From positions 3,158,808-3,222,807 of the forward strand of contig KK106983.1 of the NCBI GenBank assembly GCA_000611775.1: a stretch of 64,000 nt of DNA, in the 5' to 3' direction. The stretch comes from Umbilicaria muhlenbergii. Its lineage: Eukaryota; Ascomycota; Lecanoromycetes; Umbilicariales; Umbilicariaceae. The notes beneath the pieces are model-generated. The model did no database searches. It was not told the DNA's origin and saw nothing but the letters and a program-made list of their open reading frames with translations. This document shows, one piece after another, positions 1-58,549 of this stretch (positions within the stretch are counted from its first letter, which is position 1; each line of letters begins with the position of its first letter). Made by a program: the position numbers and the translations under genes.

Positions 1-2480
1 AAATACTTATTTAATGTGAAGCGTGTGCCCTTCTTGAGATATGTTATCACAGATACAGGGGTTGAAATGAAGATGAATCACATATTCATCATTGTCAACT
101 GATCAGAGTCAAAAAGTGTGCATGAAGTGTAAACATTTCTGAGCTTCATGAACTTTTATTAAAGGTTCATACAGAGCTTCTTGTGTATCACTGCACCTCT
201 CACAGAGATCATTAAAGAGTTTAATGCAAAATCAAACAAGAAGTTGATCTCATGAAGAGCAAACTTTCTGTCTTTGAAGGCACAGACTGCCTTTAAAGTT
301 CTTGTGCAAGCTTTCACTACTGCTCTGTTTCTGCAGCATTTCAACATCACATTATTAATACAGCTTGAAATGAATGCCTCAGGGTATGTGATTTTAAACA
401 TTCTCTCACAAAAACATCCTGATGAGTGAAGAGTTACAGTTTATTTCTCATGAAAGATGATACCTGCAGAATGAAAGTATGAAACTCATGATGAAGAACT
501 GCTCATGATAGTTGAGAGTTTTCATTATTGACAGCACTATTTAAAAGGATTCACTCATTCAGTTGAGGTGCTATCAGATCATTCAAGCTTGTGAAGTTTT
601 ATAACTACTCATAAGCTCTCATGAAGACAGGTTCAATGAGTGTTGACTTTATCAACTTATGATTTTGTTATCACTTATTGAAAGGGAAATTTAAATCTTG
701 TTAACAGCCCTTCATGAAGACCTGATCATCAACATAAAGTGAAATAAGAGGATTAAACTGAAGATGCTTTAATGTTGCAACAGGTGCTGTTTCTGACAGT
801 AACTTTAATTTCAGTTGAGCTTAAAAATGATCTATTGACTCAGGAGGTACATCTTCATGAGGTATTAATTGCAGGCACAATGAGTCTTTGACAGTGAAAT
901 CAACAGAAACAGGCCTCTGAGGCTGTTTTAAATGAAGGACCTTATGAGGAGGTTGACATCTCTCTCATTAAAATGTTATCTGAATTCTTGTGAATTGATC
1001 CCCTCATGAAGCATATGCTGAAACAGATCACTACTCATGAAGTTAATTTAAGAATGTCAGGTTCTCACTCACTTTAATCATGAAGAGATGACCTTTTATA
1101 CTTTAACTCAGTGCTTTATATACCTCATGCAGAGTCATTACAACTTGAGATTATTAAGAAGCATCATGATGAGTCACTTGCAAGTCATCTCATGACAGAG
1201 AAAATCTTTGCTCTGATATGTGCAAAGTACTACTGACTGAACATGTGAAAGCAAATTCAGAAATACTGCAATTCTTGTCTTGTCTGTCAGAGAGTCAGAG
1301 TCATTCATGAAAGATAATCTGAATTATTACAACTCATACTTATCTTGAAGGGACCCTGAGAGGTACTCACTTTAAACTTCATAATTAACCTTTCAGAGAG
1401 CCATGCTTATGAGGGTGTGTATGATGTCATATTGATGATGATGTGTAAATTCTCAAAGATGGCACATTATATTTCAATCAGAAAGGATTGAACTGCTGAT
1501 TAACTTATGAAGACCTTTGTGAGAGAGATTGTTAAACTGCATGAAGTCACTTAAGCTTTAATTTCAGATCATGAATCTGTTTTTACCTCATGACTCTGAG
1601 TCAACTTGATGTTCATGTTGAAGATTAATCATTAATTGAGCACTGCCTTTCATCTGCAAACTGATGAGCAGACTGAATGACAGAATAACATGCTGAAACA
1701 GTATTTATGAAGTTATGTCAATTATCAACAGGACAATTGAGCCTCACTTTTAGCATTAATTGAGTTTACATACAACATGAGCTTACACTCTTCTACTGAA
1801 AAGGCATCATTTGAGGTCATCTATGACTTCATACTTAAATCAGATATGCTCACTGCAGAGAAACTCATGAAGTACTTTGCAGTTAAAAGAATTATCACTG
1901 AAGCTGAGCAGCTTGTGAAGTGTCTTCATAAGACTTAAATAAAAGTCTGCAGAGCTCTTATGAAGTCTTAAGAGTATCAAGTTAAACATTATAATCAGTC
2001 TCACCTTGATGTGATTTATAAAGTCAGACAGTTAGTTTGATTAAAGGTCAAGAACATAACTCTGAAGTGACTTTCATGAAAACTGAATTGACAGTGTTAT
2101 GAACCCTTTCAAATTGTAAAGAAGATTGAAAATGTTACTTATCAGCTGAAACTACTGAAGGAACTTCATATTCATGATGTGTTTCATGTTAACCTGCTTC
2201 ATGATCATAAACTGCAGGCAGGTGAGAATACATCAGAGTTTAAATTACTTCACCTCATGAAGAACTCAGCTGAAAGGGAGTGAAAGATTAAAATTATAAC
2301 AACCTCATGAATTGTGATCAGCTCTGAGGATAAACCTGTTTTACAATATCACATTATGTGAAAGGAATTCTCAAAGATTACTTAAAAGTCTGCAGATAAT
2401 ACCTGCAACTTCAAGAAATTAATTAAGAAGTTTCATGAGGACTTCTCTGAAACTTCATGAGTCATAATCAATGCTGATAC
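1..2480 (+). pseudogene. pol remnant of Gypsy B copy 1 (RT end, RNase H, integrase, chromodomain)
   Basis: Translated segments match the pol polyprotein of fungal chromoviruses. The RT connection block is followed by RNase H with a D-E-E-L-L motif near 490-520. The integrase zinc-binding motif has paired His near 1150 and CxxC near 1270-1290. The core carries the T-A-F-H-x-Q-T-D-E-Q-T-E motif near 1640-1680. The chromodomain-like end near 2330-2460 is the region that binds histone marks in related elements and steers integration into heterochromatin (family knowledge). The region is heavily broken and no protein is expected. Confidence 0.8.
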
Positions 2481-2639
2481 ACATTCATGAGGAAATTAAA
2501 CAAAGGGCTAAGATCTCTTCTGCTCATCAGAGCATTAAGTTACTGAAGAACTGAAAGTGAAATCACTTCATGAAGCTTGAAGACTCATGAAGAGATGAGT
2601 CACACTAACTTCAGCCTGTTGAGGCTTATTAATTCTTAA

Positions 2640-3860
2640 CATCATGAAGAGATCTGACTCAGAGTTAAAGTCCTGTGAGAGATAATTCTCACAGGAGCTG
2701 ATATTTACCTCTGAAAGAGCTTAAACATCTCAATCATCATCAGTTTATCACAGCAGTATTTCCTTTCAGTGAAGCTCATGAGTTTTCATCTTCACAGAGG
2801 TGTTGAGTCTAGGCAGTGACTGCAACAGCTTTGTGAGTCTTATTCACTTAATGTTTCTTCTGCTTACACGCCTTGCGCGTCTCCTTGTGACCCTCAGGGT
2901 CAAGGTTGACTGAGGGTGAAGACAGAGGCAGAGGTGAACTCAGTTCTCATGAGAGAGATGATGAGGTTAAAGATGATGAAGATGAAGCTGTGAACAGTTA
3001 ACAAAAGCACTTCATGAAAACATATCATAAAGTCATACAGAGGAAGATGCAGGCCTTGTTGATGTGCTGATGACACTTCATGCACTTGACAGTGTGAGGG
3101 GAGAGGAAATAATTCTTAAAATAATTAAAACTGCAACCTACAGTGACAGCAACACATGACTCACAAGCCTGAGAAGAGATGTCCTCAGTCTTCATAATTA
3201 TTATCATGAAGGTCAGTCATGAAGCGTTCTCATGAAAAGGAATCACAAAAGTCACTTACAGATCATCTCATGATCTTACTTATAATCAGTGAGCTGAACA
3301 AGCTGCTGTAAAATGATGCAATCATGAAGCTGAGCCTCCCTGTGAAAGGCTACCTCATGAAAGGTTTAATTACAAGAGGCTGAGTTGAAGGCCTGCATGA
3401 ACAGAGGAAACAAACAAGAATCACAGATGATTTGCTTAAAAATGTTGATGATGTGACTGATGTGAAGCATGATGAGCTGTATCACTGTTAATGAAAAGGC
3501 ATCATGAAGGCAAGCATCATGAAGGCAAGCATCATGAAGACAAGCATTATGAGGGTAAAACATCACAAGAGACATTATAAGAATCATGATCATGAACTTA
3601 TCTGATGAGAGGTGAAAGGTTGAAGTTGTGAAAATTATTAACAGCAAAAACTCTGACCTTATGATCTGCATGAGTCATTCATGAGATTTAACAAAGTAAA
3701 TCTGAATGACCTCATGAACAGCTGAACAAGCTCACAAATGAGCAATAATCATCATGAACACTGAGTCAGTGTATAAATTAATCATAACTTTATAAACATC
3801 TTGTGAAGGGAGACTCTTTTTCTCACTGAGTTTTAATGAGCTTCACAACATATTTTTTTT
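2640..3860 (-). pseudogene. antisense accessory gene remnant of Gypsy B copy 1, Cys-rich
   Basis: Several open stretches lie on the strand opposite to pol, between the chromodomain and the 3' LTR. The stretch at 3025-3207 holds a cysteine-rich module: CxxC near its start, then V-K-C-x2-C-x6-K-A-C. The stretch at 2900-3085 overlaps it in another frame. The stretch at 3366-3671 holds three near-perfect repeats of a five-residue unit, A-C-L-H-D. No family is recognised. The Cys spacing suggests a zinc-binding fold, which is an inference. Comparable antisense remnants occur in families A and H of this window. The remnant is broken and treated as a fossil; I do not join the stretches. Confidence 0.6.
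3490..3552. repeat. short tandem repeat (15-16 bp unit, about 3-4 copies)
   Basis: The unit reads roughly ggcaagcatcatgaa and is repeated three to four times in a row. On the minus strand it encodes the A-C-L-H-D peptide repeat of the accessory stretch. Copy 2 of family B has a more diverged version near 56555-56630. Confidence 0.75.
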
Positions 3861-3981
3861 ATGATTTTAATTTTTTTTTTCTGATCTATGAGGTCATTTT
3901 TTTAACTGTTATCAGTGCATTGTGAAGCACTTCTCAGTGAAGGCTTGCAACTGTGAATGTCATCATACTCATGAGGACATG

Positions 3982-4004
3982 AGCCTTTGAAGGGGGGGGA
4001 GCAA
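3982..4004 (+). other. polypurine tract of Gypsy B copy 1
   Basis: The purine-rich stretch tttgaagggggggga-gcaa lies immediately before the LTR start. This is the usual place for the plus-strand primer of LTR retrotransposons. The matching tract in copy 2 is at 56121-56136 on the other strand. Confidence 0.7.
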
Positions 4005-17339: not shown

Positions 17340-17502
17340 TAAATAAGCAGGAGTGAGACATAACATTTATTAATTAAACACATGAAACTCCTTCACAACC
17401 TCTCATTTAATCTCAGAAGCACTTAAAGCTGTTGAGTGAATTTAATAAATGAATCTGAGATCTCTTCTCCTCTACATCATTTATACTGTCAGTGAACATA
17501 AA
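17340..17502 (+). repeat. element X2 leader, left of Gypsy A copy 1
   Basis: The block aaagctgttgagtgaattt and cagtgaacataaa match X1 at 9430-9520. The X2 sequence resumes at 24334 after the inserted Gypsy A element, and the alignment to X1 continues across the junction. Confidence 0.7.
17498..17502 (+). repeat. target site duplication of Gypsy A copy 1, left
   Basis: The bases ataaa immediately left of the LTR are repeated at 24334-24338 immediately right of the other LTR. Confidence 0.9.
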
Positions 17503-17730
17503 TGTCAGACTATAGCGTCCCTTACTAGAAAGGGAAGTATAGTCAAGGTTCATGACAGCATGAGATATAAATGTATAAAGGTTATATGATTCTAATTATA
17601 TAAAACTAATAACTAAGGAATGAAGGTGAGATTAAGCAGTGCAGAGTTTTCATGTGACTCATTAACACTGTCAAGCCGCTTATAGGACGCATGCCCTACA
17701 TGAGTCTCAGATTGTCATTAACTCATGACA
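17503..17730 (-). repeat. 3' LTR of Gypsy A copy 1
   Basis: This is a 228-bp repeat with TG...CA ends, identical in length to the partner at 24106-24333 and to both LTRs of copy 2. Confidence 0.93.
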
Positions 17731-17979
17731 ATTACCTCCCCCCTATGCAGCAGCCCTTCAGCGCAGAAAGGTGAGTGACTGATAAAAGCCTCAGTTAACA
17801 GTTGAATTGATGACACAGCATCAACACTGATTAAGTGAGATGATAGCAAGATGAGCTTGTCACATGACAGTGAAAATCTTGAGGAGTGAAGAGGCAGCAG
17901 CAGAGTCATGACAGCATCAGCATGACAGCACTATGATAATATAATCAAGACCCTGAGTGATGATATCACAACAAGGGCT

Positions 17980-18860
17980 TCAGAATATAAATATTATCAA
18001 CTCCTCAGCCTTCTGTTGTCAACTTTTGTCAGAGCAGTGATTCATCATCACAACATCATCAATGCATTCTCAAGATGCATCATCTTCATCATTACAACAT
18101 CAGCCACTATGCCTGTAAGTCAGAGAAGCTGACTCTGCAGATGCGCTTTTAATGTGAGTTATCATATAACACTCATCAATTATCAAGCGCTCTGCTGAAT
18201 CTTATACACATCTTATTGAACCTTTCTGTCTCTGTTGTTCCCGTCGCTTCACGGATGATATGACTCAGGTATGTGATGTCAGGTTGAATGTTAAGTGCAC
18301 ATATTATGCAAATCTGCATAAAGCTTATCTTCTGATAAGTTTAACCTGCTCACCTGTTGCACTTCACTGATGATTTAAGGTTCCTGTGCAATTTATCTGC
18401 AAGGTAAACACCCTCATACATCTGATCAATAAGATTAACATCAACACTCCTCTGCCTGCTCTCCTGGCCGCCCTCAAGGCGCGTCAAAAGTGTTATAACA
18501 AGAAGATTACAGCGCATCTCTGTGTTGCTGACTGTCATCAGAAGCTGTTGAAATTGAAGTCTGCTGTCAAGGTCAGCCTCCTGCTCCTTAAGCAGATCAA
18601 ACACATCAACAACATCCTCAAAGGTATCTTGAATATCATGCAATATTCAGTTTAATCCCCTTCTCTTCACCTCTGACATGATGATTATGAATCACTAATG
18701 TGCATCTTATTCTAGAAGCGTTTGCCTGCCATTGTCAATGATGATGATGATGATGACAACAGAGATTTCTCTTCTTTCAAGTTAAAGAGGTCAGAGGAAA
18801 TGAAGGAGAGTGATGAAGATGAGAAGAAAGATGAGGATGACAATGATGAGTAAATTATTT
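17980..18860 (+). pseudogene. antisense accessory gene remnant of Gypsy A copy 1, Cys-rich
   Basis: This gene remnant is on the strand opposite to pol, between the chromodomain and the 3' LTR. A TATA-like tataaata lies at 17986-17993 and an ATG at 18109. A cysteine-rich stretch lies at about 18272-18345 (C-D-V...V-K-C...H-K-A). The 89-residue open stretch 18386-18655 is rich in Lys, Leu, Asn and Ile and looks helical, coiled-coil-like. A stretch at 18718-18855 encodes a run of seven Asp followed by a Lys/Glu/Asp-rich tail. No family is recognised. Family B and H elements have comparable antisense genes. It is broken and treated as a fossil; the stretches are described separately. Confidence 0.65.
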
Positions 18861-19139
18861 TTTACTGATGTTTTGCTGATTCTGTACAATAATTCCTTTT
18901 GCCTGCTTTGGTTCATCATGATGACAGTAATAATATTATGATTCTCATGTGCTTTTCTGATGATTCACCTTTCTTAATGAACTTGTCACTCTTGACCCTT
19001 GCTGTAAATCACTTATAAGGCCTCAATAAAACCTGTAAAACCTCTTGAGGAAAATCAGGAAAGAGTGTTCTTATGATGTCAGTTAAGTCTTTTTAAATCA
19101 CTTCTTCCTGTGCTCTTTTAATTTATTATTGAAGGCTGC

Positions 19140-22100
19140 ATGCATTTCCTGCACACCTTTTAAGTCCTTCTTTGACACTCATTGATCATATTCTTCTGGT
19201 CAACCCTTTCATCTCACTTTGTACAGGATTTCATTCCTGAATTTTCAGTGATTTAGTATCTCTTCAACTTCATATTCTTCTTCATCATCAATTAGCTCTG
19301 AAGGTGACAGTAATGATTTAAAGTGATCATCAACTCTGCACTGATATGACTTCAGGTAAGAGATGTGAAAGACATTATGAATTTGATAAATGAGCAGTAA
19401 AGTTAACTTGTAAGCCTGCTTCTCTATTAAGTCTTCAATCTGAAATGATTTAATGAATTTGTGAAACAGTTTCCTGCTTAAGCGCTTCTGTCATAAGTTC
19501 TTCATGAATAACATTATCAAGTCTCTCACATTATAGGTCTTGAGTTTATGTTTAACATCATAATATTTTGCCTGAGAATTAACTACATTTTCTCATCATT
19601 GTGACAGCACTTTTTATATGTCATGAAATCATTTCACTTGATCTTTGACTGTGAGTACCTTTTCTTTCCTGAAGTCATCCTTGACTTCAAATCTTACTTC
19701 TGAATGATAAGCATACATGACATAAAAAGAGCTGCACTCTATTGATGCCTGTGTTTCATTATTGTAAGTGAATTCTGTCAAGGGTAAAAGATTCATTCAG
19801 TTGTCTTGTTCATCTGAGCAATAATAATGAAGGTAATGTTTCAAGATTTGATTCTGCTGTTCTGTCTGTTCATTCATTTGCGGGTGAAAGGCAGTGCTTA
19901 GTCAGCACTTCATTCTTAAATAATAGCACATTTCTGATCAGAAAGCGCTTGTGAAAACTGATCTCTGATCAGAGACAGCCTCTTTCAGTACACTGAATCA
20001 GCATATTATTTCCTCATAGAACAAGTCAGTCAACTCTGTTGTCATAATCATTTTTGTGATTTGAATATACTGAGCCATTTTCATATATCAATCTACAATC
20101 ATTAAGATCACATCATACACGCAACCCCTGCATTTACTTGGCGGCAAGTCAGTGATAAAATTCATGATGACTTGCTGTCATGATCCTTCTGGCTGAGGCA
20201 GCGCCTGTAGCTCATCATAAAGATGATGTTTAAACACTTTTATCCTTTGACAGATGTCACATGATGCAACATAATCTTTAACATCTTGACTCATATCAAT
20301 TTAATAATATTTGCAGTCAATCAATTTAAGGGTTCTTTCTACTCTGAAATGCCCTGTCAAGGCATCATCATGATGATGTTTCAAGATCTCTGCCCTTACA
20401 GACTCTTCTTTCAAAATGTATATTTATTCCTCATGAAATAGAAGGTCTTCAGAGTCAACTCTTCAGAGACTTTCAGCTCTAGCCTTGCACTTCATTGATG
20501 TACAGTCAGCGTTGCGTGTCACTTCTACAAATGAATCATCATTTTGTAGAGTTTGAATCAAATCCCTTAAAGGTAGACTCAGGCTTTCATCAGCTGTTTC
20601 ATGAATGACAAGATCTCTTATCATCACATGTGAAATGAGTTGTTTGCAATCAACAGTTTCAGTGACAGGGTTAAGCTGTTTCACAGTTATGTCACAGTCA
20701 TCATGAGCAGATGTTTTGTCATCACTCCTTCAGCATTTTTTCTGAAGTTTAAGATCTTTAATTCTGATCATTCTCCTCACTCCTGCAAGCAACTGCCTCA
20801 CAATAAGGGCATATCTGGGTGAGAATATGTTCACAAGAGTGATTAACTTTCTCTGAAGCATTGAGAGTAATTTCTTTATAATTTCACTCACCTCTTTAAC
20901 ATCCCCGTAGTCTGATCACCTTGATGATGCATCAGCGGGGTTGATCTTTCCAGACTGATGCAAGATATTAAAATCAAAAGTAGTGAGCTTCATTGCTCAT
21001 CATGCCTGCTTATCATTTAATTCCTTCACGTTCATAAATCCTCATAAATTGTTATGGTCAGTCAATACCTCTATGATATGACAACTGCCTTCAAGATAGT
21101 GGCGTCAGTGTTTAAACATCATAATGATGACAAGGAGCTCTTGATCATGAGTTTCATATCAAGTCTCTGAAGGAGACAGCTTCCTTGATCAGAATGCAAC
21201 TGAATGTCACTCTTCACTATTCAACAGCTGAGACAGGATGCCACTGAGCTCAATGATTAACACATCAGTTTTCACCCGTATTCATAACTTTGAGTCAAAG
21301 TGAATCAGGATGAGCACTGTCATAAAGATTTCATGAAGGCAGTCAAACACCTCCTTTGCATCATTTGAGAATTCAAAAGGCTTAAACTTCTTTTCATCCT
21401 TGCTACCTTTCATAAGGTTTGTCAAGGGGGCTGCAACTTGTGAATAGCACTTAATAAAGCGTCTATAAAAGTTCACAAAGCTCAGGAAGACTTGTACTTC
21501 CTGAAAAGTCCTTAATACTGATCAGTCTTGTATGATGTTCACTCATCATGGATTCATCACTACACCTTCAGTTGTGATAATAAACCCTAGGAATTCCACC
21601 TTGATAATGAAGAATTCACACTTCTTAGGGTTCATGTAAAGTTGAAATCAATGAAGTCAGTTTAACATCTGCTTAACATGCTCTCAGTGTTCTGCCAGTG
21701 ATTCTGAATATATAAGAATGTCATCTAGATAAACAATGCAAAAGACATTCACAAGCCTCATTAACACTCAGTTGATGTAAGCCTGAAACATAGCCGGCGC
21801 ATTTGCCAATCTGAAAGACATGACCATATACTCAAAGTGATTGTAATGAGTGTGAAACACTGTTTTCCACTCATCACCCTTCTTGATGTGAATACAGTGA
21901 TAGACGTCCTTTAAATCTAGCTTCATAAATAGCTTGACTTCACTAAGCTGATTCAACATTTCACTTATAAGAAGTAACAGGTGCCTGTTCTTGATGATCA
22001 CCTTATTCAACCTCTGATAATCAACACATAACTGCAGCTCTTCATCTTTCTTTGAAACAAAAAGGATGAGTGCTCCTGCAGGGCTCATGAAATGATGAAT

Positions 22101-22800
22101 TCAACCTTTCATTAAAGTGTCATTCAAGTATTCTCATAGTACCTCTAATTCAGTATTGAAGAGATTATACAAAGGGTCATAAGATGAATCTGTGCTGTTC
22201 AGGTCAATTGCATGATCACTGATCTTATGAGGTGAAAGGAGGTCAGCATTCTCTGTTGAGAACACATTCACATAATCAGCATACTCCTCAGGTAAAGCTT
22301 GTGTTATTTCAGCACTTTGTATGCGCACCTTTGATGCAGCATCATCACTCAGACTGACTCATATCATGATGTAGACAGCAAAGTGGTCTTGAATCTCCCT
22401 TGTGAATTCATCAAATGACTGTAACTCAATAAGCTGCTTCTTAATGTTGAAGCGCCACGCCTTCATTCTGCAGTTGATTCACACATGTTCAGTCTTTAAT
22501 GCAGAGAGTTCAAGGATAAGGGGTGATCCTGACTTATTCAATGTGTAGAACACATGTTCACATTTGTGAGATTATCCTCAACTGTTGATAAGCTGATAAT
22601 GCACACAGTAAGCACTGAAGCAGTAAGCCTTCTGATCATTTAAGAATTAAAGTTGAGGCAACAAGCCCTTCATATGAGTTAATTGATGCTCAATAATGAA
22701 ATGTTGTGAAATCACATTGACTTCAGCTCCCGTGTTCAATAAGGCTTGCATGAGTATGACATCATCATTGTGAAGAACTTGTTCATCAACAATTAAATTA
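19140..22800 (-). pseudogene. pol remnant of Gypsy A copy 1
   Basis: On the minus strand the retropepsin block L-N-T-G-A-E-V-N-V-I-S lies at about 22690-22800. The pre-RT and RT blocks are in open stretches 22134-22328 and 21768-22088, the latter with [18 protein letters not shown] and the F-x-L-x-N-A-P-A-x-F-Q block. The RT end is in 21282-21476 and RNase H follows. The integrase zinc finger has C-D-I-C-Q-R (about 20260), its core T-A-F-H-x-Q-x-N-E-Q-T-E (about 19870). The chromodomain block E-E-Y-E-V-E-E-I-L lies at about 19280-19310. The order protease, RT, RNase H, integrase marks Ty3/Gypsy. It is broken many times. Confidence 0.88.
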
Positions 22801-24080: not shown

Positions 24081-24105
24081 CTTTAAAAGGTAAAGTTATT
24101 AGAAC

Positions 24106-24333
24106 TGTCAGATTATAGCGTCCCTTACTAGAAAGAGAAGTATAGTCAAGGTTCATGACAGCATGAGATATAAATGTATAAAGGTTATATGATCCTAATT
24201 ATATAAAACTAATAACTAAGGAATGAAGGTGAGATTGAGCAGTGCAGAGTTTTCATGTGGCTCACTAACACTGCCAAGCCGCTTATAGGGCGCATGCCCT
24301 ATGTGAGTCTCAGATTGTCATTAACTCATGACA
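24106..24333 (-). repeat. 5' LTR of Gypsy A copy 1
   Basis: This is the 228-bp partner of 17503-17730, with about ten differences, all transitions and no length change. Confidence 0.93.
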
Positions 24334-27300
24334 ATAAAGGACTCTGTGATCAGAGTGCAATTATTAAATGAGACAAAACCCCTCATTATCACTTTACATC
24401 AGTGTGAGTGATGTTATACTGATCAGTTTAACCTCATGTCACATAAGTTCATTAAATTCAACTTCCTGCCTGAGTGATGAAACCTCATTTCAAGCTTATT
24501 AGGTCACTTTATTTGCATGTGCATGAATATTATCATTAATTCACAATACTCAACACCTGTGAGAAGGATATGACATCAGAGTCATACAACATGAGCTTAA
24601 ACCTCAGAGAATTCTTCATGAAAAGTGAGATCTTAAATGATCTGCCTGATTTAAGTGCGCTTTATGACGCAGTGAGAGCTGAAAAGCTGAAGTATGCACA
24701 TGCAACTGAGTGTGAAATCCTTCAAATAATAAAGAACTACTGAGGCAACTGAATAATCTCTCTTATGTCATTATATCAATTGTTATTATATGACTTATAC
24801 CACTTCCTGAGTGATGCTGAGAAGGAGTGCATTCAGCATCAGATTTTATCAGATCTGAAAGTCAAGCTGTTTAAGATGCATGACTTAAATATTTACTGAG
24901 TGAGAAGTGATGACCTTTTCAGATCTTTCAAATCAGTCTCAGCAGTCACGTGAGGAGGCGTGACTGATTATGATTTTAAATTCAAGGCAGTTAAAACTTT
25001 ATATGATAAGTGAAAGAGAGAGCTGAACTCAGAACCTGATCTCATTGAACTCATTAAAACATTTAAGAACATGACAGTGAGCAAAGAGGTTAAAGAGCTG
25101 ACAGACAGAAGTGATGAAGAGGACAGTAATAAAAAATCAATTACTGAATCTTAAAGAGAGAATTCAGATGAGCTCAAGGATCAAGACATCACTGTGAAGA
25201 AAGTGAATACAATCAATCAAGATGAGACTACTTAAAGTCAGGTCAATTTTAATATCATACACACAATTACCTTATCAAGATCAACCTCAACAAATGACTC
25301 AACTTCATCTGCTGTTCAACCTCACCTATTAACCTCTGATTATCAGTTTTTGCAAATGATAGCTCATCAGAAAAGACAGTTCAAGCTCACATATTAAAAC
25401 TCACCTCATGACAGCTCACTCACTCAACACTCTCTGCTACATTTCAATTCACCTCACTCAGTGAGTGAGACATCAGATCATGCTGAGTTGATTATATCAT
25501 CTCTGTCATGAGATCACCTGCCTCACTCAGCTCAGTCAGTCAGATTTAATAATTTAGTTGATACACTTCATCTGATGAGTCATTTCACGTCAAAAGAATC
25601 ATGATCATTACTCATACTCAATCAGCCCTCATTAGTCAAGGAATACCTTGCATTGACTTCATCAACATTAAGAAAAGATGAGTTTAACTTCATCAAGCTC
25701 ATGTTATGCATGACCTCATTAAGAATGAAACTCAGTGCATCAAGCTTTATCATCAACAATCACTCACCTGCTCAGACATGTTTAAAGCCTGAAACTTGAT
25801 CAAGAATCCTCTCATCACAGCTCATAAGCTCTCATACATCTCACAACATAACATCAGACATCATTCATCTCATGACATCTCAGCTGATTGACATCATAAA
25901 GTGAATCTTTACCTCAGAGCCTACCTGCACCTTAAGAGAAACAAGGTTGAGGTCAGGTCTTCAGCCTAATTCAGTGAAACTTAAAATGTTGAAGAAGGAT
26001 GATCATCTCAACTCTGCATCAACTGAGGTTCCTGAACTGAAGAGAGTGAAAACAATCATTAAAGAAAGTAATTAAAAAGATGAGATTAAGATTCTGAGCT
26101 CACCTCACATTCTGAAGGTATACAAGAAGGGAGGATCAGTCAGAAGAAACATCATCATGAATTATAAAAAGACTCTGATCAACATGAACTTTGCAGACTG
26201 ATCAGTCTATTATCATAAGTTTGATTGAAGTTTGTATGATGTGAAAGACATAAACACAGCTTCATTAATGAATGTGAGGCTCATCAATCACCTGATGCAA
26301 CAAGTGATGAAACAGCTCATTATTAATAATCAGGTGACTTAATACAAGGCAGACTTTAATGTAAATGAAGCTTCTAAAATCATATGATACAGTCTGAGCT
26401 CAGTCATCAAGCTCAAAGTTCAGTCTGATGAAGAAAACTGAGGGGTCAGATGATATAATCAAGTCTGATGAAATCAATATGAGTTCATTGATGAGGCAGG
26501 GGCAAGGAAAGGGAATTCAGTGATATTAAAGAAAAGTGTGAAAAAGAAGGTAAAGAAGTGAAAAGCAAGTGAGTGAAGTTTAAGTGAAAGATCATTCATT
26601 CAAGGAGATTTTAAATTTGATTACATAATCACTGTCATGAGGTTTTTAAGGTCAGGTAAGCACTTAAAACCTGTACAGCTCATGAAGTTTTCACTGTTGA
26701 TTGAAAGACCTGCTCAACTGAAGACCTCATGATTAATCATGTGAGAATCAGCATTACTGAGCTTAATGAGAATAAATTAACCCTCAGAGATGAAGCTGAG
26801 GCTGTTGAGCATGAGCATCAAGTCAGAAGAACAATCTTTAAGTAATACACTTAAAAATCATGACATGACGGAGAAGAAGGCAATCAGGAAGGTAATAAAT
26901 GAAAAGATGACATGAATGAAAAACAAGTTGAAAAAGATCACACATCAGATGCTCATGATTAATGAAGCACTTCAACAAACTTATGATGATGACTGAAATC
27001 TCCTCAACATCATTATTTTTTTAAAGCAAATTCAGGCAGACCTGATCAACTTCATCAATGAGTTCATCATCAACCTCAGTGCTCATCTTGAGGATGAAAG
27101 CAAGTCTAGGTTCAACAAGATGTGATTTATGAACATGTGAAAGAAAGCTCTTGACAGGCATGATTACTCAAGTTTCATCATTAAAGATGACTGAGAAGAG
27201 GTTAAAAAACTGAATGTCTTGATAAAAGAGAATGAAGGGGATAATCCTTTATCAGAAGGATATGAGGAATAAAGAATAAAAGTAAATCATCTGAAAGCTG

Positions 27301-35469: not shown

Positions 35470-36520
35470 AAGTGTGTATAAGCTATCAACATCTGAACAT
35501 TTGAACTCATGACTGCAGACAACAGTGAAGACTTATCTCTGCTGAATAAACCTGTCAGCCTTCATACTCAGTGTGATGAGAAAAGCTCTGAGGTGTTGTT
35601 GTTAACAAGTGAGCTCATGATGATTAACACCTTCAGAAAAAGATGAAAAAGCAGAAAAGAAAAATAATCTGTTCAACATTTAAAGAAAACTCAACATTTA
35701 TCTTTAAATGATGCTTTTGATGAGAAGTTTTACTCTGTATGATGTCATGATGATACCTCACTGCCAGCTCATGTGCAGCAGGCTCATCATTATGAGTATG
35801 TGATTTAAAAGAACCTCAGTCACATGTTGTTAAATACTGCTCATTGTGACTCTTGCAGAAAAGCTGAGGTTGATTAATACTTCATATCATAAGTTAATTT
35901 AACCTGTGCTCATTACATGTCACTCTGCAACTTTTATGATCAATGTATAATGAAGTCTTTGATCATCATTATTTTGATTTTTAAAAAATCTGATGTTGTT
36001 GTCCTGCATGCACATGCTTATGATGACAGGAGGAGTGACAGTACACTGTAAATTTTTTTTTAATTCTCTTTCATTTTATTTTATTTAGTATGATTATATT
36101 GTATTGTTGTATTATTATACATAGAATATTTTATCATACTGTCATATTATTGTACTGTCATGTTATATATGTTAATTGTGTATAACATTTAACAGTTAAT
36201 TAATTAATTTTTACACTGTTATCTTTTATTAATCATTATTAACATTCTCTGCACTTCTCACAATTACTCCTCAACATGAGTCTCTTAATATTTTATGCTG
36301 ATATGATGAGTATTAATTCAGTAATCTTGAAAAGCTCATTTAAACTCTTGCTGTCTTGCTGAAAAACATTACTCATACTCTCTGTGTTCTTAACACTCAT
36401 CAATCTCACTGCTGTCAAGAGTATATTGAACTCTTTAAGCAGCATCATGTTAAGAAGATGAGGTTAAAGACTTCATTAAATAATGAAGAAAAGTATAAGA
36501 CAGCAGAATAATAATTAATA
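35470..36520 (+). pseudogene. antisense accessory gene remnant of Gypsy H, Cys-rich
   Basis: On the strand opposite to pol, a TATA-like tgtataag (about 35475) is followed by an ATG at 35509 and a coding-like stretch with S-E-D-L-S-L-L-N. A Cys cluster lies at about 35845-35950 (C-D-S-C, then L-T-C-x-H, then C). A Lys/Leu/Asn-rich helical stretch lies at about 36320-36500 with I-T-H-T-L-x-V-L-N-T-H. This order (N-terminal basic part, CxxC module, helical part) parallels family A. No database family is recognised. It is broken and treated as a fossil. Confidence 0.5.
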
Positions 36521-38356
36521 ATGAAATTATTTCCTCATTTTAATATTTATATCATGCACATGTAACCTGTAATGTTTCTCATAAGAAGTAACATAGCTGT
36601 CATAGCCTCTGTCATAATCTTATCATAAGGTACAGTTATATTTCTGTTATAAAAAATTAAATTGAACAAAGCTGATAAAGTTTTCATGTAAATAAGATGA
36701 TTTTTAGTTATATTCATGTTGTACAGCTCACTTGAATTTCAGCTTGTTAAAATTATCAGCATGAAATTTCTGCAGTTTTGTCTTTACATTGCAGATAAAG
36801 TGTATTAATTTTCATGTATCATCTCACACCTGATCTGTCAGCTTTCATTTAATGAGGTATTAAAGCCTGCTGTTATAAACACAGTTATTCATAATTGCTT
36901 CAACTTCTCACTCATCATCTTGATTAAGTAGTAGGTCTTTTCCTGTCAATGCAGGAAATACATGACATGTGTTTTAAAATGACTTTAATAAAACAATATT
37001 GAACATGTTATAAATATTTCAATCCTCTGAGAGGTTGAGTTTATATGATGATTGACTTATCACACATCATACTTTAAATGAGTTAAACTTTTTTCAATGC
37101 AGTTTCTTCATTTGCTTGTTCATTAATATATTTTTTTCATTAATCAGTATTAAATGATCTTCTTTGAATGTTATCTCTGTTCAGTGTTGATTATAATACT
37201 CAGCATATGTTTCATTAACTTGTCATAACTTTTTTTAAGTTGTAGCATTTTGGTCTTAAAGCCTCTGTGCATTCACATAAGATTTTATTTGTTTATGTGA
37301 GTATTGTATAAACAGCTTACTTAAGCTCATCTGAGGATTTCACTTTAAATTAAGCTGAAAGGGGCTCTTTTCTGTAGCAGCATGTATGAAGTTGTTGTAT
37401 GAGAACTTCATGCAGAGTAAAAGCTTGACTCAGTTCTCTTGCTACTCATTAATGAATATATGTAAATACATCTTCAGGAACTGATTCTGCCTCTCAGTTT
37501 AATTATTAATTTACAGGTGAAAAGCTGTTGACATGTTATAATTATATCACATGTAAAAGCAGAAGCTGATTTACTGCTTTAACATAAACAACTTATCTCT
37601 ATCTGTGATTAAAACTTTTAACATGTTATGATGCTTAATTATGTCTTAAATAAACACTTCAATGAAGTCAGCAACTATCATCATCTTTTGTATAAAAATA
37701 TAATGAGTCATCTTGATTAATTTATCAACTATGACAAGGATTGAATCTCATGTCATACTTTCATACATGTTGCTCAGTGACAGGTTCATAATGAAGTTCA
37801 TTGTCATTGTATGTCATGACACTTCTGAGATTGATAATGAGTTTAATAACTTATATGATTTGTGATGAGCTGACTTCACCTTTTGACATTCAATATAATC
37901 ATAACAGTAATGTCATACATCTCTGACAGTATCAAGTCAGTCATAAGATCATTATATTAATTTTGTAATTCTTGACTTCTCAAAATGACTTGCAAAGACA
38001 TCATCATGAAATTAACTGATCATCACATTGTGAAGAGCAGAGTTCTGCAGAATGTAAATTTTATCATTATAATATATGACATCCTCAATTTCCTGTCAAT
38101 ATTTTCATATATTTAATAATATAAATATCATATTTGACTGCATCTCTGATGTCATGATCATCTCATAATTTATGTTTATATTCATGTTTGTCATCTTAAA
38201 TTTAATCAAGTTATTTTTATCTTCAATAAGAGTAGTTAATTCCTGTTGTACTCATCATATCAAATCATCTTTCAACTGTTCAGTATGAATCACATGTTTA
38301 AGTTGTTTAATAAATATTTTTATATAAGCTGTTATCTCCTCACTTATTGATGAGTG

Positions 38357-39265
38357 CATCAGCAATTTAGCAAGTTAACTCTGAGTTAATTTTTAACACT
38401 TTGAGCGCTCTGAGCTTCTGATCTCATGTCTCAGTTAACAGCCGCTCTTAGCACCTTCTGAGTGCTTTGAGCTCAACCTTAAATCTTGAGCAGAACATCA
38501 AAATTTTGTGATAAAAAAACAATTATTAAAACAATTGTTTAAACAAGTACACACACAGTGTTATAATAACAGTAAAACTTATAATAAGTAAACTTTTGCT
38601 AAAATTCACTTTTCTGCAATAAAAAATCATGATTTGTTGAGTCTGAAAGCACTGTATAAGTGTTGAGTTCTGAATATTTAAAGAACTTCAAGATTTTCAT
38701 CACTTAAAAATTTACACACTTTAATAACTTTTGCACCTCAACAGATATGAAGAAACTTTCAATGCATAAATTATAAAAAACAGTATTCTCTATTAATGTT
38801 AAACTAAAAGTTTCTTCATAACTGCTGCTGTTGTTAAGTTATATTTAATTCAAGTCTTCAATAGTGAAAAATCTTTCAAAAAAAAGTCACATACTTTGAA
38901 TAACTATTGCGCTTTTATACTTATAATATAACTTTCAGGTTATAAGTTGTAGAGAATAAGCTGTTTAAGAGTTTTCTGATACAAAGTTTCTTTTTATGTG
39001 TTGTTGTTGTTGAGTTATTCAAAAAGGCATTAAAAGTCTGTTTATTAATGTTGTGATTTTCATAACTGAAAGTTTGAAATCAATGTAACTTTTTAACAAC
39101 AACAGTGATAAAAAAAACTTTAAGTTATAAAACTGTTAAATAGCTTCTTCTCTACAACTTATAAACTATTTGTATGAGCTCATTTACTGCTCAGAGAGTG
39201 CTCTGAGCGCATAAAGTACTATTAACTAAAACCTTATTTTTGAGCGGGCTGTCAAATTGCAGATG
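38357..39265 (-). mobile_element. D element, copy 1 (palindromic non-coding TIR element)
   Basis: This is 909 bp running from CATCAGCAATTT to AAATTGCAGATG, reverse to copies 2 and 3. It shares the ends and most of the interior but lacks about 210 bp present in the others. It has no coding capacity. It lies inside Gypsy H between the integrase and the peptide-repeat region. The flanks tgagtg and tgagta are similar but the target duplication is not certain. Confidence 0.75.
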
Positions 39266-39399
39266 TGAGTAAACATGAGTTAAAGTGCTTCAACAGTATC
39301 AGCAGAAGTGTTATTCTTAATTTAAAGATTAATAAGAACATGACTTATATCACTGTTTATAACTTCAATGTCTGCTGAGCTATTCTTGATTAAATGCTG

Positions 39400-40010
39400 C
39401 TGAGACTTTGTATATTTAAGTCCTCTGACTAAGTAACAGCTTGCTTCTTAAGTAGATAAGTGTTGCATGATGTGTGCTTTAATGATGTCATTAATTTCTT
39501 TTAACATGACATGATTTGCTTTTTGAGCAGGTAGGTTTCACACTGCTGATGTTTTAATGAAATCATCAGTTTTTTTCAATATGATATTTTCATCATTATG
39601 ATTTACTTCTTTTTGAGCAGATAAGTTCTGCATCATTGATGTTTTAATGAGATCATCATCTTCAGTAATCATCATACTGAGTAGGTGATGCACTGCTGAT
39701 GTTTTGATAACATCATTAACTTCATTTGACATGACATTTTTATCATTTTTATTACAGCTTGCTTCTTCTTAAGCAGGTAAGTTTCACACTGTTGATGTTT
39801 TAATGAGACTGTCATCTTCAGTAATCATTATACTGAGTAAGTGACACACTGTTGATGTTTTAATGATATCACTGACTTCATTTAACATGATACTTTCATC
39901 ATTTTCATTACAGCTTGCTTCTTTTTAAGCAGGTAAATTCTGCACTGTTGATGTTTTAATAAGATCATCATCTTCAGTGTTTATTATATTGATAATATTC
40001 ATTGTGATAA
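39400..40010 (-). repeat. tandem repeat array coding a D-D-x-I-K-T-S peptide repeat, in Gypsy H pol
   Basis: About seven degenerate units contain gatgttttaatga-atcat and alternate with gcttctttttgagcaggtaagtt-type blocks; the combined period is near 70-95 bp. On the minus strand the units encode D-D-x-I-K-T-S-x-x-x-x-L-x-x-x-K-E. The open stretch 39538-39732 covers three of them. The array lies between RNase H and integrase, where most Gypsy elements have only a short linker. Confidence 0.7.
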
Positions 40011-41981
40011 GTATAATATTCTCTTGTTGTAGCTTCTGTCATACTGCCTTTAATTATAATGTCATCACAGCAAGTGTGTATAATTTCTTTTATACTGACT
40101 TATAATCTTCACTTTTTAAGTGAAAGAACTGTCACATTATTTCAGCAGCAGTTGAGGTACTGACAGTTTTCAGTAATTCATAATCAGGTTGTCTTGATAA
40201 GTCATCAGCAGAGTTCTTTTTATCTTCTTAATATGTGATTTTAAAGTTGTATTTAATAAGCTTCTCAGCTCATTTGAGCTGCCTTCATGTGAAGTTTAAG
40301 GTAATCATGAATCAAACAAGGGTTGCATGATTAATTAATATGATAATTTGATGTCATGCACCCTGACAGTAGTGCTATTAATAATGCATGACTTTCATGA
40401 TGACAAGAAGCTCTTGCTCACTTGTATTATAATAAGTCTTAATATTTAACAGCTTCTTGCTGTAGTATGTGATTAATAATCAATGAAGTTGATCATCAAT
40501 CTTAAAGCATTATGTCAAAATTCTGTCAATTGTGAATTCAGAGGTGTCAGTTTCAACCTTCATCAGTTTATTTTCATTAAAATAATATAATAATGAAGCA
40601 CTTATGAAGATCTTCTTCAGAGCTTTAAATGCTTTCAATGCAGCTTCTGAAAGTGAAAAAAAAGCAGGTATAACATTTTTTTTTGTAACTTTTCTTTAAT
40701 CTGTGAACTGCATGCTGAATAACTCATGTTAAATTTTTACAATGAGATTAAGCTGCTCTGCTTTCCTTCAATGTCTTGATGAGGAGCAGTTTAATGAGTT
40801 GAAAGAAAATTTAATATAATTTTAATCTTCTTTTTATTCCTTTCTGTTTTTAAGAGATTTAACAGTAGTGCTGTAATTTGAGAATAATCTCTTATAAACC
40901 TTCAGAAGAAGTTAATAAAGCTTAAAAAAATCTGCAATTTATAAATGTTTTTCAGAAGCAGTTATTCTTTGACAGCTTGAATTTTTTTTAAATTCATATG
41001 TATACTTTTTGTGTTGATTTTAAATTCTAGGAAGTTCACTTCTGTTGTATTAAATAAACACTTACTGATCTTAAGGTGAAGATCATGATGTCATAATGCA
41101 GCTAGTACTTATTATACATGCTCACTGTGTTTAAACTTATCTTTGCTAAAGATCAAGATATCATTTAAGTAGATTACACATGTGATGTTCAGAAACTCAT
41201 TAAGCACCTTATTAATAAAGGCTTGAAACATAACAGGAGTATTCATGAGACTGAAAAATATAACAAGATATTTAAACAGGCTGAATTGTGTTTAAAATGC
41301 TGTTTTTCACTCATCTTCACCCTTGATTCATATTTGATTATATACATTCTTGCAGTTCAGCTTAATGAACTTCTTAACTTCTTAAAGATGATTCAACATG
41401 TCTGATATAAGTGATAATAAGTAGTGATTTTTAATGATAATATTATTCAAGTGTTTATAATCAATAATTAGTCATAAGCTGCTGTCTGATTTTAATATAA
41501 ACATAACAGGTGAAGCTGCAGGTGATATTAATTTATAAATTATGTTTATCTTCATAACATTATCTAGATATACCTTCAATATATTGAGTTTAACTGAAAA
41601 CATTAAATATAACTTTTTAAATGAAGGTTGCTGCTTCAATTTCAAGTTAATGACATAATCATATGAACTTCTTTCAAGCAGAGATTACTTCTCAGCTGTC
41701 TGAAATATGTCTGTGAAGTCATAATATTTAAGAGGTAAACTGTCATAAACATTGTCATATCCTTTGTCATATCACAATGAGTTCATTTGTAGAGTATTTT
41801 TTTATATTAATCACTAAGTCTGATGATCCTATGAAGTGATTCATGATAAAAAGATTATTCATATGTAAAATGCTCTTCAGCACCTTTCTCTCATTGACAG
41901 AGAATACTTAATGTGTTATGATATGTCTCACCTTTTTTCATAAGAATTTTCCCATGTCATATTCATGATTTAGATTTGCAT

Positions 41982-42463: not shown

Positions 42464-43344
42464 TCAGAATATAAATACTGTCAACTTCTCAGCCTTCTGT
42501 CATCAACTTTTGCCAGAGCAGTGATTCATCATCACAACATCATTAATGCATCCTCAAGACACATCATCTTCATCACTGCAACATCAGTCATTATGCCTGT
42601 AAGTCAGAGAAGCTGACTCCGCAGATGCACTTTTAATGTGAGTTATCATATAACACTCACTGATTATCAAGTGCTCTGCTGAACCTCATGCACATCTTAT
42701 TGAACCTTTCTGTCTCCGTTGTTCCCGTCACTTCATGGATGATATGACTCAGGTATGTGACGTCAGGTTGAATGTCAAGTGCGCATACTGTGCAAATCTG
42801 CACAAAGCTTATCTTTTAATAAGTTTAACCTGCTCACCTGTTGCACTTCACTGATGATTTAAGGTTCTCACATGATTTACCTGCAAGGTAAACACTCTCA
42901 TATGCTTGATTAATAAAGTCAACATCAACACTCCTTCACCTGCTCTCCTGACCGCCCTCAAGGTGCGTCAAAAGTGTTATAATAAGAAGATTACAGCACA
43001 TCTTCATGTTGTCAGCTGTCATCAGAAACTGTTGAAATTGAAGTTTGCTGTCAAGATCAGCCTCCTGCTCCTTAAGCAGATCAAATGCATCAACAACGCC
43101 CTTGAAAGTATTCTGAATATCATGTGATATTCAGTTTAATCCTCTTCTCTTCACCTCTGACATGACAGTTATGAATCATTAATGTGCATCTTATTTTAAA
43201 AGTGTTTGCCTGTCATTGTTGATGATGATGATGATGATGATGATGAAGATTTCTCTCCTTTTGAGTCAGAGGGGTCAGAGGAAATAAAGGAGGATGATGA
43301 AGATGAAAAGAAAGATGAGAATGATGATGATGAGTAAATTATTC
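42464..43344 (+). pseudogene. antisense accessory gene remnant of Gypsy A copy 2, Cys-rich
   Basis: Collinear with 17980-18860. TATA-like tataaata lies at about 42470 and the ATG at 42593. The Cys module here reads K-C-A-Y-C-A-N-L-H-K-A at about 42777-42809, a clearer CxxC than in copy 1. The helical open stretch is 42906-43127, and an acidic Asp/Glu/Lys-rich stretch ends at about 43337. It is preserved in the same place in both copies. Function unknown; treated as a fossil. Confidence 0.65.
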
Positions 43345-43623
43345 TTTGCTGATGTTTTGCTGATCTTATATAATAGTTCCTTTTGCCTGCTTTGATTCAC
43401 TGCAGCAGCAGTAATAATATTATGATTCTCATGTGCTTTCCTGATGATTCACCTTCTTTAGTGAACTTGTCACTCTTGACCCTTGTCATAAATCATCTAT
43501 AAGGCCTCAATAAAATCTGTAAAACCTCTTGAGGAAAATCAGGAAAGAGTGTTCTTATGATGTTAATTAAATCTTTTTAAATTACTTCTTCCTGCACTCT
43601 TCTAATTTGTTGTTAAAGGCTGC

Positions 43624-46600: not shown

Positions 46601-47284
46601 GTGTCATTCAAGTATTCTCATAATACCCCTAATTCAGTATTGAAGAGATTATACAAAGGGTCATAAGATGAATCTGTGCTGTTCAGGTCAATTGCATGAT
46701 CACTGATCTTATGAGGTGAAAGGAGGTCAGCATTCTCTGTTGAGAACACATCTGCATAATCAACATACTCCTCAGGTAGAGCTTGTGTTATTTCAGTGCT
46801 TTATATGCACACCTCTGATGCAGCGTCATCACTCAGACTGACTCATATCATGATGTAAACAGCAGAGTGGTCTTGAATCTCTCTTGTGAATTCATCAGGT
46901 GACTGTAACTCAATAGGCTGCTCCTTAATGTTGAAGCGCCACGCCTTCATTCTGCAGTTGATTCACACATGTTCAGTTTTTAATGCAGGGAGTTCAAGGA
47001 TAAGGGGTGATCCTGGCTTATTCAATGCATAAAACACATGTTCACATTCATGAGATTGTCCTCAACTGTCAGTAAGCTGATAATGCACACAGTAAGCACT
47101 GAAGCAGTAAGCCTTCTGATCATTTAAGAATTAAGGTTGAGGCAACAAGCCCTTCATACAAGTTAATTGATGCTCAATAACAAAATGTTGCAAAATCACA
47201 TTGACTTCAGCTCCCGTGTTCAATAAAGCTTGCATGAGTATGACATCATCATTGTGAAGAACTTGTTCATCAACAATTAAATTA
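43624..47284 (-). pseudogene. pol remnant of Gypsy A copy 2
   Basis: Same order as in copy 1, from chromodomain (about 43624-43824) to protease (about 47174-47284). The open stretch 45760-45960 is the RT end with N-F-Y-R-H-F-I-K-C-Y-S. It is broken many times. Confidence 0.88.
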
Positions 47285-56269: not shown

Positions 56270-57480
56270 AATGTTGTGAAGCTTATTAAAACTCAGTGAG
56301 AAAAAAAGTCTCCCTTTTTAAGATGTTTATGAAGTTATAATTAATTTATACACTGACTCAGTGTTCATGATGATTATTGCTCATTTGTGAGCCTGTTCAG
56401 CTGTTCATGAGGTCATTCAGATTCACTTTGTTAAGCATCATGAATAACTTCATGTGAATCATAAAGTTAAAGTTTTTGCTGTCAGTAATCTTTACAACTT
56501 CAATTCTCTCATCTCTCATCAGATAAGTTCATGATAATGATTTTTATAATGCACTCTTATAATATTTGCTTTTATGATGCTTACTTTCATGATGCTTACC
56601 TTTGCAGTGCTTGCCTTCATGATGCTTTTTCATTAACAGTGATACAGCTCATCATGTTTCACATTAATCATATAATTAATGCTCTTAAGCAAATCATCTG
56701 TGATTTTCATTTGTTTTCTTCATTCATGCAGGCTGATGATAAAGCTTCATGCAATTATACCTTTCATGAGGTTATCATTCACAGAGAGACTCAGCTTTAT
56801 GATTATATTATTTTACAACAGCTCATTCAACTTATTAATCATGAGTAAAAGTATAAAGTGATCTGTAAGTGATCTTCATGATCACTTTTCATAAAAACGC
56901 TTCATGACTGACCTTCATGATAATAATCATAAAGACTGAGGACATTTTTTCTTAAACTTGTAAATCATATGTTGCTGTTATCATGAGCTGCAGTTTTAAT
57001 CATTTTAAGAGTTGTTTCCTCTTCCCTCACATTATAAAGTATGTAAAGTGTCATTAATATATCAGCAAGACTTGCATCTTCCTGTGTATGATTTTATGAT
57101 ATGTTTTCATGAAGCACTTTAATTAATCATGTTGTAACCTCATTTTTATCATCTCTGATCTCATCATCTTTCTCATGAGAACTGAGTAAATAAAGCTCAC
57201 AAAGCTGTTGCAGCAGCTGCTTAAGCTCAACACCTCTGTAAAGATGAAGACTCATGAGCTTTACTGAAGAGAAATACTGCTGTGATAAACTGATGATGAT
57301 TGAGATGTTTAAGCTTTTTCAGAGGTAAATATTAACTCCTGTGAGGATTATTCCTTACAAAACTTTAACTCTGAGTCAGATCTCTTCATGATGTTAAAGA
57401 TTAATAAGTCTTAACAGGTTGAAGTCAGCATGATTCATTTCTTCATGAGTTTTCAAGCTCTGTGAAGTGATTTTACTTTT
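56270..57480 (+). pseudogene. antisense accessory gene remnant of Gypsy B copy 2, Cys-rich
   Basis: Open stretches 56531-56848 and 56679-56861 correspond to 3366-3671 of copy 1. The Cys-rich part at about 56950-57090 keeps the same spacing (K-Y-V-K-C-H...S-K-T-C). A helical Leu/Gln-rich stretch (T-K-L-L-Q-Q-L-L-K-L-N-T) lies at about 57195-57235. It lies opposite to pol, as in copy 1. Fossil; not joined. Confidence 0.6.
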
Positions 57481-58204: not shown

Positions 58205-58549
58205 TGTAACAGGTGATGTTATAATGACTGAAGTAATATTATCATTTATCAAACTATTAATATCATGATTGAATAGAACTTAGAAGATAGAATTAACAGA
58301 TTGCTTTTAATACATGAGTTGAGCATGAGCTTCTAACTATGAATCTACCTGTGATTATATAAACTTTAGGAGACTCATGTGATCAAGGTGATCATAATGA
58401 TTAAATTCTTAATCACTCTGAACAGCTCAATCACCTTGATTGAGATGATTAAAGTATTCAAGCTCTCACTCATCTTAATCACTTCAATCAGTATCAGCTG
58501 TTCACTGCAAGCACATACTTTTAAGTACTGTTTTAATTAAGTCATAACA
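58205..58549 (-). repeat. 3' LTR of Gypsy C
   Basis: 345 bp, TGTAACAGGTGATG... to ...GTCATAACA on the plus strand (TG...CA). A purine-rich tract on the minus strand (gaggagagctaa) follows immediately at 58550-58562. The partner LTR is not in the window, so the left edge is supported mainly by the end of homology to Gypsy B copy 1. Confidence 0.65.

What the first reader, a model, noticed from the sequence alone, without database searches (positions are those of the whole stretch)
17980..18860. An antisense cysteine-rich accessory gene recurs in unrelated Gypsy families of this genome
Seen: in family A (17980-18860, 42464-43344), B (2640-3860, 56270-57480) and H (35470-36520), the space between pol and the 3' LTR holds coding-like sequence on the strand opposite to pol. 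Each has a CxxC module (A2: K-C-x2-C-x4-H-K-A; B1: V-K-C-x2-C-x6-K-A-C; H: C-D-S-C then L-T-C) followed by a helical Lys/Leu-rich part. A and H have a TATA-like box upstream. Established: a few plant Gypsy groups carry antisense genes in this position. Inference: one ancestral zinc-binding accessory gene was kept by several fungal chromovirus lineages, perhaps acting on expression, silencing or host chromatin. This is the best candidate in the window for an undescribed system.
Basis: partly seen in the sequence, partly recalled or inferred. Interest (0 to 1): 0.78.

Follow-up and report, generated by a model that had tools for sequence, protein, structure and literature searches.

The report
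Antisense six-cysteine genes in fungal retrotransposons

Summary
In families A, B and H one frame opposite to pol, beside the 3' end, has the fewest TAA/TAG of six frames and carries six cysteines, C-x2-C-x(7-14)-C-x(7-8)-C-x2-C-x(6-9)-C: one hit per family, 3 in 24,294 codon columns over 18 frames; 0 of 2000 shuffles reach 3. Transversions, which CpG decay cannot make, favour third codon positions of this frame in A (20/15/42, p 3e-4), not in its flank (14/9/10). B and H lean likewise, not significantly alone. In H the gene has the lowest transversion distance of 105 windows. Three GC-normal loci carry the module. Corrections: only A has a Lys/Leu-rich tail; B and H end at fixed TAA after 69-75 codons from the ATG column; a fourth family's spacer lacks the gene. 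Common descent: supported A-H, weak A-B, not shown B-H. Antisense accessory genes are known in plant Gypsy elements and Botrytis Boty (brtn): a new variant of a known kind. Metal binding and regulation are inferred; structure models failed.

The parts
18119..18652 (+). Family A copy 1: antisense open frame (178 codons between TAA at 18116 and stop at 18653), ATG column at 18152
   Evidence: ATG 8 of 8 copies; 8 of 8 fetched copies keep 534 nt; 7 TAA/TAG cells of 1424, lowest of six frames
18227..18328 (+). Six-Cys module of A copy 1, C-x2-C-x11-C-x7-C-x2-C-x6-C (fifth and sixth positions C in 4 and Y in 4 of 8 copies)
17986..17992 (+). TATA-like box upstream of the A antisense gene
   Evidence: 8 of 8 copies; chance level not tested
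19119..22298 (-). pol of A copy 1 (RT, RNase H, integrase, SH3_Tf2-1), the opposite strand
17500..17735 (-). 3' LTR of A copy 1 (partner 24103-24335, 95% identical)
42603..43136 (+). Family A copy 2: antisense open frame; module 42711-42812; pol 43603-46782 on -
3001..3255 (-). Family B copy 1: antisense open frame of 85 codons between fixed TAA columns; ATG column at 3207
   Evidence: bounding TAA 30 of 30 on both sides; ATG 28 of 30; 6 TAA/TAG cells of 2550, lowest of six frames
3049..3165 (-). Six-Cys module of B copy 1, C-x2-C-x14-C-x8-C-x2-C-x7-C
10..2229 (+). pol of B copy 1 (RNase H, integrase, SH3_Tf2-1)
56869..57123 (+). Family B copy 2 (inverted), same antisense frame, more decayed
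35809..36048 (+). Family H: antisense open frame of 80 codons ending at TAA 36049; ATG column at 35824
   Evidence: ATG 24 of 30, stop TAA 29 of 30, 33 TAA/TAG and 0 TGA cells of 2399, lowest of six frames
35845..35946 (+). Six-Cys module of H, C-x2-C-x7-C-x8-C-x2-C-x9-C
36842..41741 (-). pol of H (RT, RNase H, integrase parts, with gaps)

Best explanation
Each of these Ty3/Gypsy families carried a small protein-coding gene on the strand opposite to gag-pol, between pol and the 3' LTR, starting at its own ATG on the LTR side and read towards pol. The product is a small protein (167 codons in A, 69 in B, 75 in H, counted from the ATG columns) with a six-cysteine module of two CxxC pairs near its N-terminus, most likely binding zinc. 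Shown: place, strand, fixed starts and stops, six-Cys layout, preserved frame and protein-level constraint (strong in A; H and B agree without reaching significance alone). Inferred: that it is transcribed from an antisense promoter at the 3' end, that it binds metal, and that it works as a nucleic-acid-binding regulator of the element's own expression or copy number, as is proposed for plant antisense accessory proteins.
For: Frame statistics against the five other frames; six-Cys pattern unique to these frames; third-position transversions 20/15/42 in A against 14/9/10 in its flank, B 8/4/12 (89), H 4/2/7 (25), pooled p 7e-6; H pol blocks are periodic or lean so (p 0.12, 0.02, 0.036) and H spacers are not (p 0.68, 0.94, 0.40); lowest transversion window of 105 in H; frame length kept in 8 of 8, 29 of 30 and 29 of 30 copies; genome-wide H matches in the right frame mostly have 0-2 stops against mostly 4-8 TGA with a wrong-frame query; GC-normal relatives with the same module; pol on the other strand.
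Against: B and H periodicity is not significant alone (p 0.14 and 0.23). One majority TAA/TAG column stands in the A frame and one in the H frame, and B matches mostly carry 1-4 stops. No Pfam, NCBIfam or PHROG model reaches a cut-off and no PDB match is below E 0.5. AlphaFold2 gave no usable fold (mean pLDDT 42.7 and 39.6). No RNA data. Some Cys positions are Y in many copies (A fifth and sixth 4 of 8, B third 13 of 30, H fifth 17 of 30). Pol of H further in (3401-4000) has fewer transversion columns per 100 than the gene, 3.7 against 5.4, in fewer copies, so the gene is not the best conserved part of the whole element. The spacer of family K lacks the gene.
Confidence: 0.6

Rival explanations
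1. The product acts after translation as a nucleocapsid-like or capsid-interacting restriction factor that limits retrotransposition, not as a transcription regulator.
For: Small size and CxxC-rich module; the best PDB profile match of the B type is a viral nucleocapsid zinc knuckle, but only at E 2.3.
Against: No CCHC model match in the antisense frames tested; the layout is six Cys and not CCHC.
Confidence: 0.2
2. The constraint is on antisense RNA or on DNA (promoter, small-RNA source) and the open frame is incidental.
For: In H the gene stretch differs by fewer transversions per copy than the neighbouring end of pol; antisense transcripts of retroelements can be regulatory (passages of PMC7264820).
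Against: Codon periodicity in A, position 2 below position 1 below position 3, and the highest synonymous count of the six frames (21 against 3-13); Cys layout kept across families.
Confidence: 0.12
3. The modules were captured independently from a host family of six-Cys proteins by separate retrotransposon lineages, so the shared place is convergence.
For: A-type and B-type each have their own GC-normal relatives (L073 against L077/L078); B-H profile similarity is not above the null.
Against: Same strand, same slot and N-terminal module in three families; A-H profile similarity above all 68 nulls. Whether the GC-normal loci are host genes or old element remnants is not settled (only 0.3-2.8 kb of each was seen).
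Confidence: 0.3
4. Chance open frames in CpG-depleted DNA, with spurious cysteines from decayed arginine codons.
For: CpG observed/expected is 0.01-0.18 in the window and several other cysteines in these frames are of C/H/R type.
Against: The six module columns are invariant or C/Y except one R in A; stop, periodicity and conservation tests above.
Confidence: 0.03

Closest known systems
brtn of Boty (BcGypsy1) elements, Botrytis cinerea (Zhao et al. 2011, Virology 417:248, not held; known here only through passages of PMC7264820, PMC8365987, PMC4227169, PMC5987419)
   Same: Additional antisense gene between pol and 3' LTR of a fungal Ty3/Gypsy element with a chromodomain
   Different: Its protein sequence could not be seen, so shared descent is untested; the passages read do not mention a six-Cys module
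Plant antisense aORF-3R genes (maize Grande gene23, rice RIRE2, Silene Retand ORF4, PvRetro13)
   Same: Same strand and slot; present in most copies of a family; function unknown, nuclear role proposed (PMC7264820, passages and section 7)
   Different: Retand carries the TRP28 domain (PF04195; PMC11963269, abstract and passages); hmmscan listed no such match here
Fungal Zn(II)2Cys6 cluster (Gal4 type, PF00172)
   Same: Six cysteines with two CxxC pairs (layout recalled)
   Different: First loop 7-14 instead of 6 residues; no PF00172 row for the modules, and none of the 75 Zn_clus matches listed in the genome lies at L073, L077 or L078

Membership tests
Antisense additional ORF between pol and 3' LTR (aORF-3R) | Open frame opposite to gag-pol, between pol and 3' LTR | tested here: met
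   (A, B, H); the 3' LTR itself was delimited only for A
Antisense additional ORF between pol and 3' LTR (aORF-3R) | Conserved like other element proteins | tested here: met
   periodicity significant in A only
Antisense additional ORF between pol and 3' LTR (aORF-3R) | Present in most copies of the family | tested here: inconclusive
   the 8 A, 30 B and 30 H copies were fetched by similarity to this very region, so presence is biased
Antisense additional ORF between pol and 3' LTR (aORF-3R) | Transcribed antisense from its own promoter | not testable with these tools
   only a TATA-like box in A (8 of 8) and in part of H (13 of 28)
brtn (Boty) | Homologous protein | not testable with these tools
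   paper and sequence not held
Zn(II)2Cys6 cluster, PF00172 | Match to the Pfam model | tested here: not met
   (no PF00172 row up to E 10, HMMER filters on)
Zn(II)2Cys6 cluster, PF00172 | C-x2-C-x6-C-x5..12-C-x2-C-x6..8-C (recalled) | tested here: not met
   first loop 11 (A), 14 (B), 7 (H); the rest fits A and B, H has x9 in the last loop
CCHC zinc knuckle, PF00098 | C-x2-C-x4-H-x4-C (recalled) and Pfam match | tested here: not met
   one weak match (E 0.91) lies on the gag strand of A
TRP28, PF04195 (Retand antisense ORF) | Match to the Pfam model | tested here: not met
   no PF04195 row
One homologous gene in A, B and H | Profile similarity above null | tested here: inconclusive
   null comparisons reaching the observed score, A-H 0 of 68, A-B 4 of 74, B-H 12 of 72

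The most novel reading that the evidence does not exclude
A family of small six-cysteine proteins circulates in this fungal lineage as an antisense regulatory gene of several divergent chromovirus families and also as GC-normal single-copy loci, meaning that retrotransposons and host exchanged a zinc-binding regulator, possibly one that the host re-used against the elements.
Probability: 0.25. Interest if true: 0.75.

Novelty: new variant of a known kind. Interest (0 to 1): 0.52.

Why it matters
Antisense accessory genes of LTR retrotransposons have long been described without a known function (PMC7264820). Here one recognisable module recurs in three families (the A pol is only about 30-41% identical to those of B and H in local alignments), is well conserved in H, and has stop-free relatives in GC-normal DNA that can be made and tested. 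That makes the question of what these genes do directly testable, and warns that spacers passed over as non-coding in decayed elements can hold genes.

Tried and rejected
Rejected: sense-strand coding of the spacer (more TAA/TAG in all three sense frames than in the antisense frame; fewer synonymous columns). Rejected: module cysteines as decayed arginines, although this is true of other cysteines in the frames. Rejected: family K as a further carrier: a Cys-rich stretch at 58696 met the single-sequence pattern but not the test on three copies, two of which read alike there.

Led nowhere: IMG/VR scans with five alignments (matches above E 1e-3 are not shown by that tool); Pfam, NCBIfam, PHROGs, PDB; AlphaFold2 models with mean pLDDT 42.7 and 39.6, so no fold search was run. 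Ten literature searches ran. PMC8365987 stood in the listing, but brtn came to light only through the plant review PMC7264820.

Errors of mine: one search showed A in a wrong frame; one search searched with a wrongly framed query, kept as a negative control. Within-family transversion counts, before diverged A copies were added, were too few to decide.

Full report
Setting. The window is C3:3158808-3222807 of an unnamed 34.8-Mb assembly in 7 contigs. Of 75 matches to the Zn2Cys6 transcription-factor model (PF00172), 64 are marked over its cut-off, 4 of them with their neighbours, which fits a filamentous fungus. CpG observed/expected is 0.01-0.18 per 4 kb and TpA/ApT is 0.52-0.81, so decay is mainly CpG to TpG/CpA; C/Y and Q/stop changes among copies suggest some CpA decay too. 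TGA is therefore a weak sign against coding and TAA/TAG a stronger one. No frame of 150 codons is listed.

Anatomy. tblastn with the A pol and Pfam place pol on - for A (22298-19119 and 46782-43603), on + for B copy 1 (10-2229) and on - for H (41741-36842). The A pol is about 31% identical to B and 30-41% to H in these local alignments. The A LTR pair is 17500-17735 and 24103-24335, 95% identical. LTRs of B and H were not delimited.

Copies. I fetched 8 of 40 scored A matches, 30 of 40 for B and 30 of 40 for H. Each was turned so that the strand opposite to pol reads forward. One antisense frame per family is open but for scattered stops: A 178 codons (TAA before it 8 of 8, ATG column 8 of 8, stop 8 of 8), B 85 codons (TAA 30 of 30 on both sides, ATG 28 of 30), H 80 codons (stop before it 30 of 30, TAA after it 29 of 30, ATG 24 of 30). 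TAA/TAG cells: A 7 of 1424 against 19-70 in the other five frames; B 6 of 2550 against 30-82; H 33 of 2399 against 53-100, with 0 TGA against 73-231. The A and H frames each have one column with majority TAA/TAG. Length stays a multiple of three in 8 of 8 A copies, 29 of 30 B copies (over 2106-2480) and 29 of 30 H copies.

Six cysteines. CpG decay turns Arg codons into Cys or His, so a cysteine-rich frame can be an artefact. I counted only columns with C at 30% or more, C+Y at 85% or more and H+R at 13% or less. The pattern C-x2-C-x5..16-C-x5..12-C-x2-C-x5..10-C then occurs three times in 24,294 codon columns of 18 frames: once in A, once in B, once in H, each in the open antisense frame. Shuffling the columns within frames gave 0.003 hits on average and never three in 2000. 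The pattern was chosen after seeing the modules. A scan of the raw window, with Y allowed, finds the five module copies plus 58696, which fails when three copies are compared.

Selection. Transversions cannot come from CpG decay. Within A, B and H alone they are few: 2/2/4, 2/1/4 and 4/2/7 by codon position. Adding four distant A copies (L074 twice, L075, L076; 12 rows) gives 20/15/42 over 1640-2036 (p 3e-4) and 8/4/24 over the module (p 9e-5), while the 136 bases upstream give 14/9/10 (p 0.53). The antisense frame has the most synonymous columns of six (21 against 3-13). The distant B copy L079 gives 8/4/12 (p 0.14); H alone p 0.23; A, B and H pooled, third-position excess p 7e-6. As controls, H pol blocks give p 0.12, 0.02 and 0.036, and H spacers p 0.68, 0.94 and 0.40. 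Transversion columns per 100 bases in H are 13-15 in spacers, 5.4 in the gene, and 9.8, 3.7 and 3.7 in three pol blocks, the last two in fewer copies (21 and 12 against 29). Mean transversion distance to the window copy, over 105 windows of 240 bases from 1081 to 3400, is lowest over the gene, 0.42-0.57%; the lowest pol window has 0.63%, and printed spacer windows clear of the gene have 1.9-7.0% (copies over 15% left out per window). In A the lowest windows lie in pol (0.00%); the gene has 0.1-0.9% and the stretch after it up to 2.1%.

Relatives in the genome. In the right frame the H module finds 150 places (150 of 164 candidates scored), mostly with 0-2 stops, including a size class of 78 codons at 57-72% identity. 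A finds 96 of 96 candidates, B 75 places, these mostly with 1-4 stops. Three GC-normal loci carry the module free of stops: L073 (A type; GC 0.42-0.50), L077 and L078 (B type; GC 0.50, 15 and 13 CpG in about 300 bases); one of the six Cys is Y in L073 and in L078. L077 finds itself, L078 (49%) and 14 places that are all in the B list, E 1.9e-5 to 0.16, two of them below 1e-3. L073 finds itself, 7 places with a 45-codon frame that look like a further family, and 61 others, all in the A list by coordinates. No Pfam domain at E 0.1 and no A pol remnant was found in the 2.8 kb around L073.

One gene or several. Pairwise hhalign aligns the cysteines of A with H (P 0.015, and 0.0095 with L073 added) and the KCxxC part of A with B (P 0.089); B-H misaligns (P 0.24, and 0.067 with L077-L079 added, then in register for the first cysteines), and A-B with L073 and L077 added misaligns (P 0.23). 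HH probabilities are 0.3-4.3% throughout. Against random windows the A-H score is reached by 0 of 68, A-B by 4 of 74, B-H by 12 of 72. Common descent of all three is plausible and not proven.

What it does. No family model reaches a cut-off, no solved structure is below E 0.5, and no viral contig matches; AlphaFold2 gave no confident model. By place and strand it works like the antisense accessory genes of plant Gypsy elements, for which PMC7264820 (passages and section 7) reports nuclear localisation (Grande) and proposes regulation, and PMC11963269 (abstract and passages) possible DNA binding (Retand TRP28). In fungi, PMC7264820, PMC8365987, PMC4227169 and PMC5987419 (passages) cite the antisense gene brtn of Boty elements from Zhao et al. 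2011, which is not held. I take a metal-binding, nucleic-acid-binding regulator as the likeliest function, at about 0.4; that the gene is real, at about 0.9.

Novelty. The kind is known. The six-Cys module, its recurrence in three divergent families, its constraint and its GC-normal relatives did not appear in the listings of the ten searches made; most subscription papers are missing from that library, and brtn may prove to be the same gene.

Noticed in passing
58150-59157: Spacer of a further Gypsy family (pol 61967-59157, -) has no six-Cys antisense gene by the same column rule; a Cys-rich stretch at 58696 is not kept in the 2 other copies compared.
   Followed up: yes
L073:1251-1466, L077:38-301, L078:39-257: Stop-free six-Cys modules in GC-normal DNA of the same genome without a near-identical second copy in the listings; host genes or element remnants.
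   Followed up: partly
G000 C4:2658296, C2:3286409, C4:2689160, C2:6728476, C7:1670163, C6:1469985, C1:7598557: Seven places matching L073 with a 45-codon frame: probably a fourth repeated family with the module.
   Followed up: no
24450-26100: Long gag-like frames on + between A copy 1 and the - strand pol at 29573-27630, by eye from the translation: perhaps another element in the opposite orientation.
   Followed up: no
window 1140-1960 (pol side of B copy 1) compared with L021, L027, L036: Three of 30 B copies keep the spacer but are only 50-54% identical over the last 0.8 kb on the pol side (L014 80%), so they are truncated or have exchanged parts.
   Followed up: no
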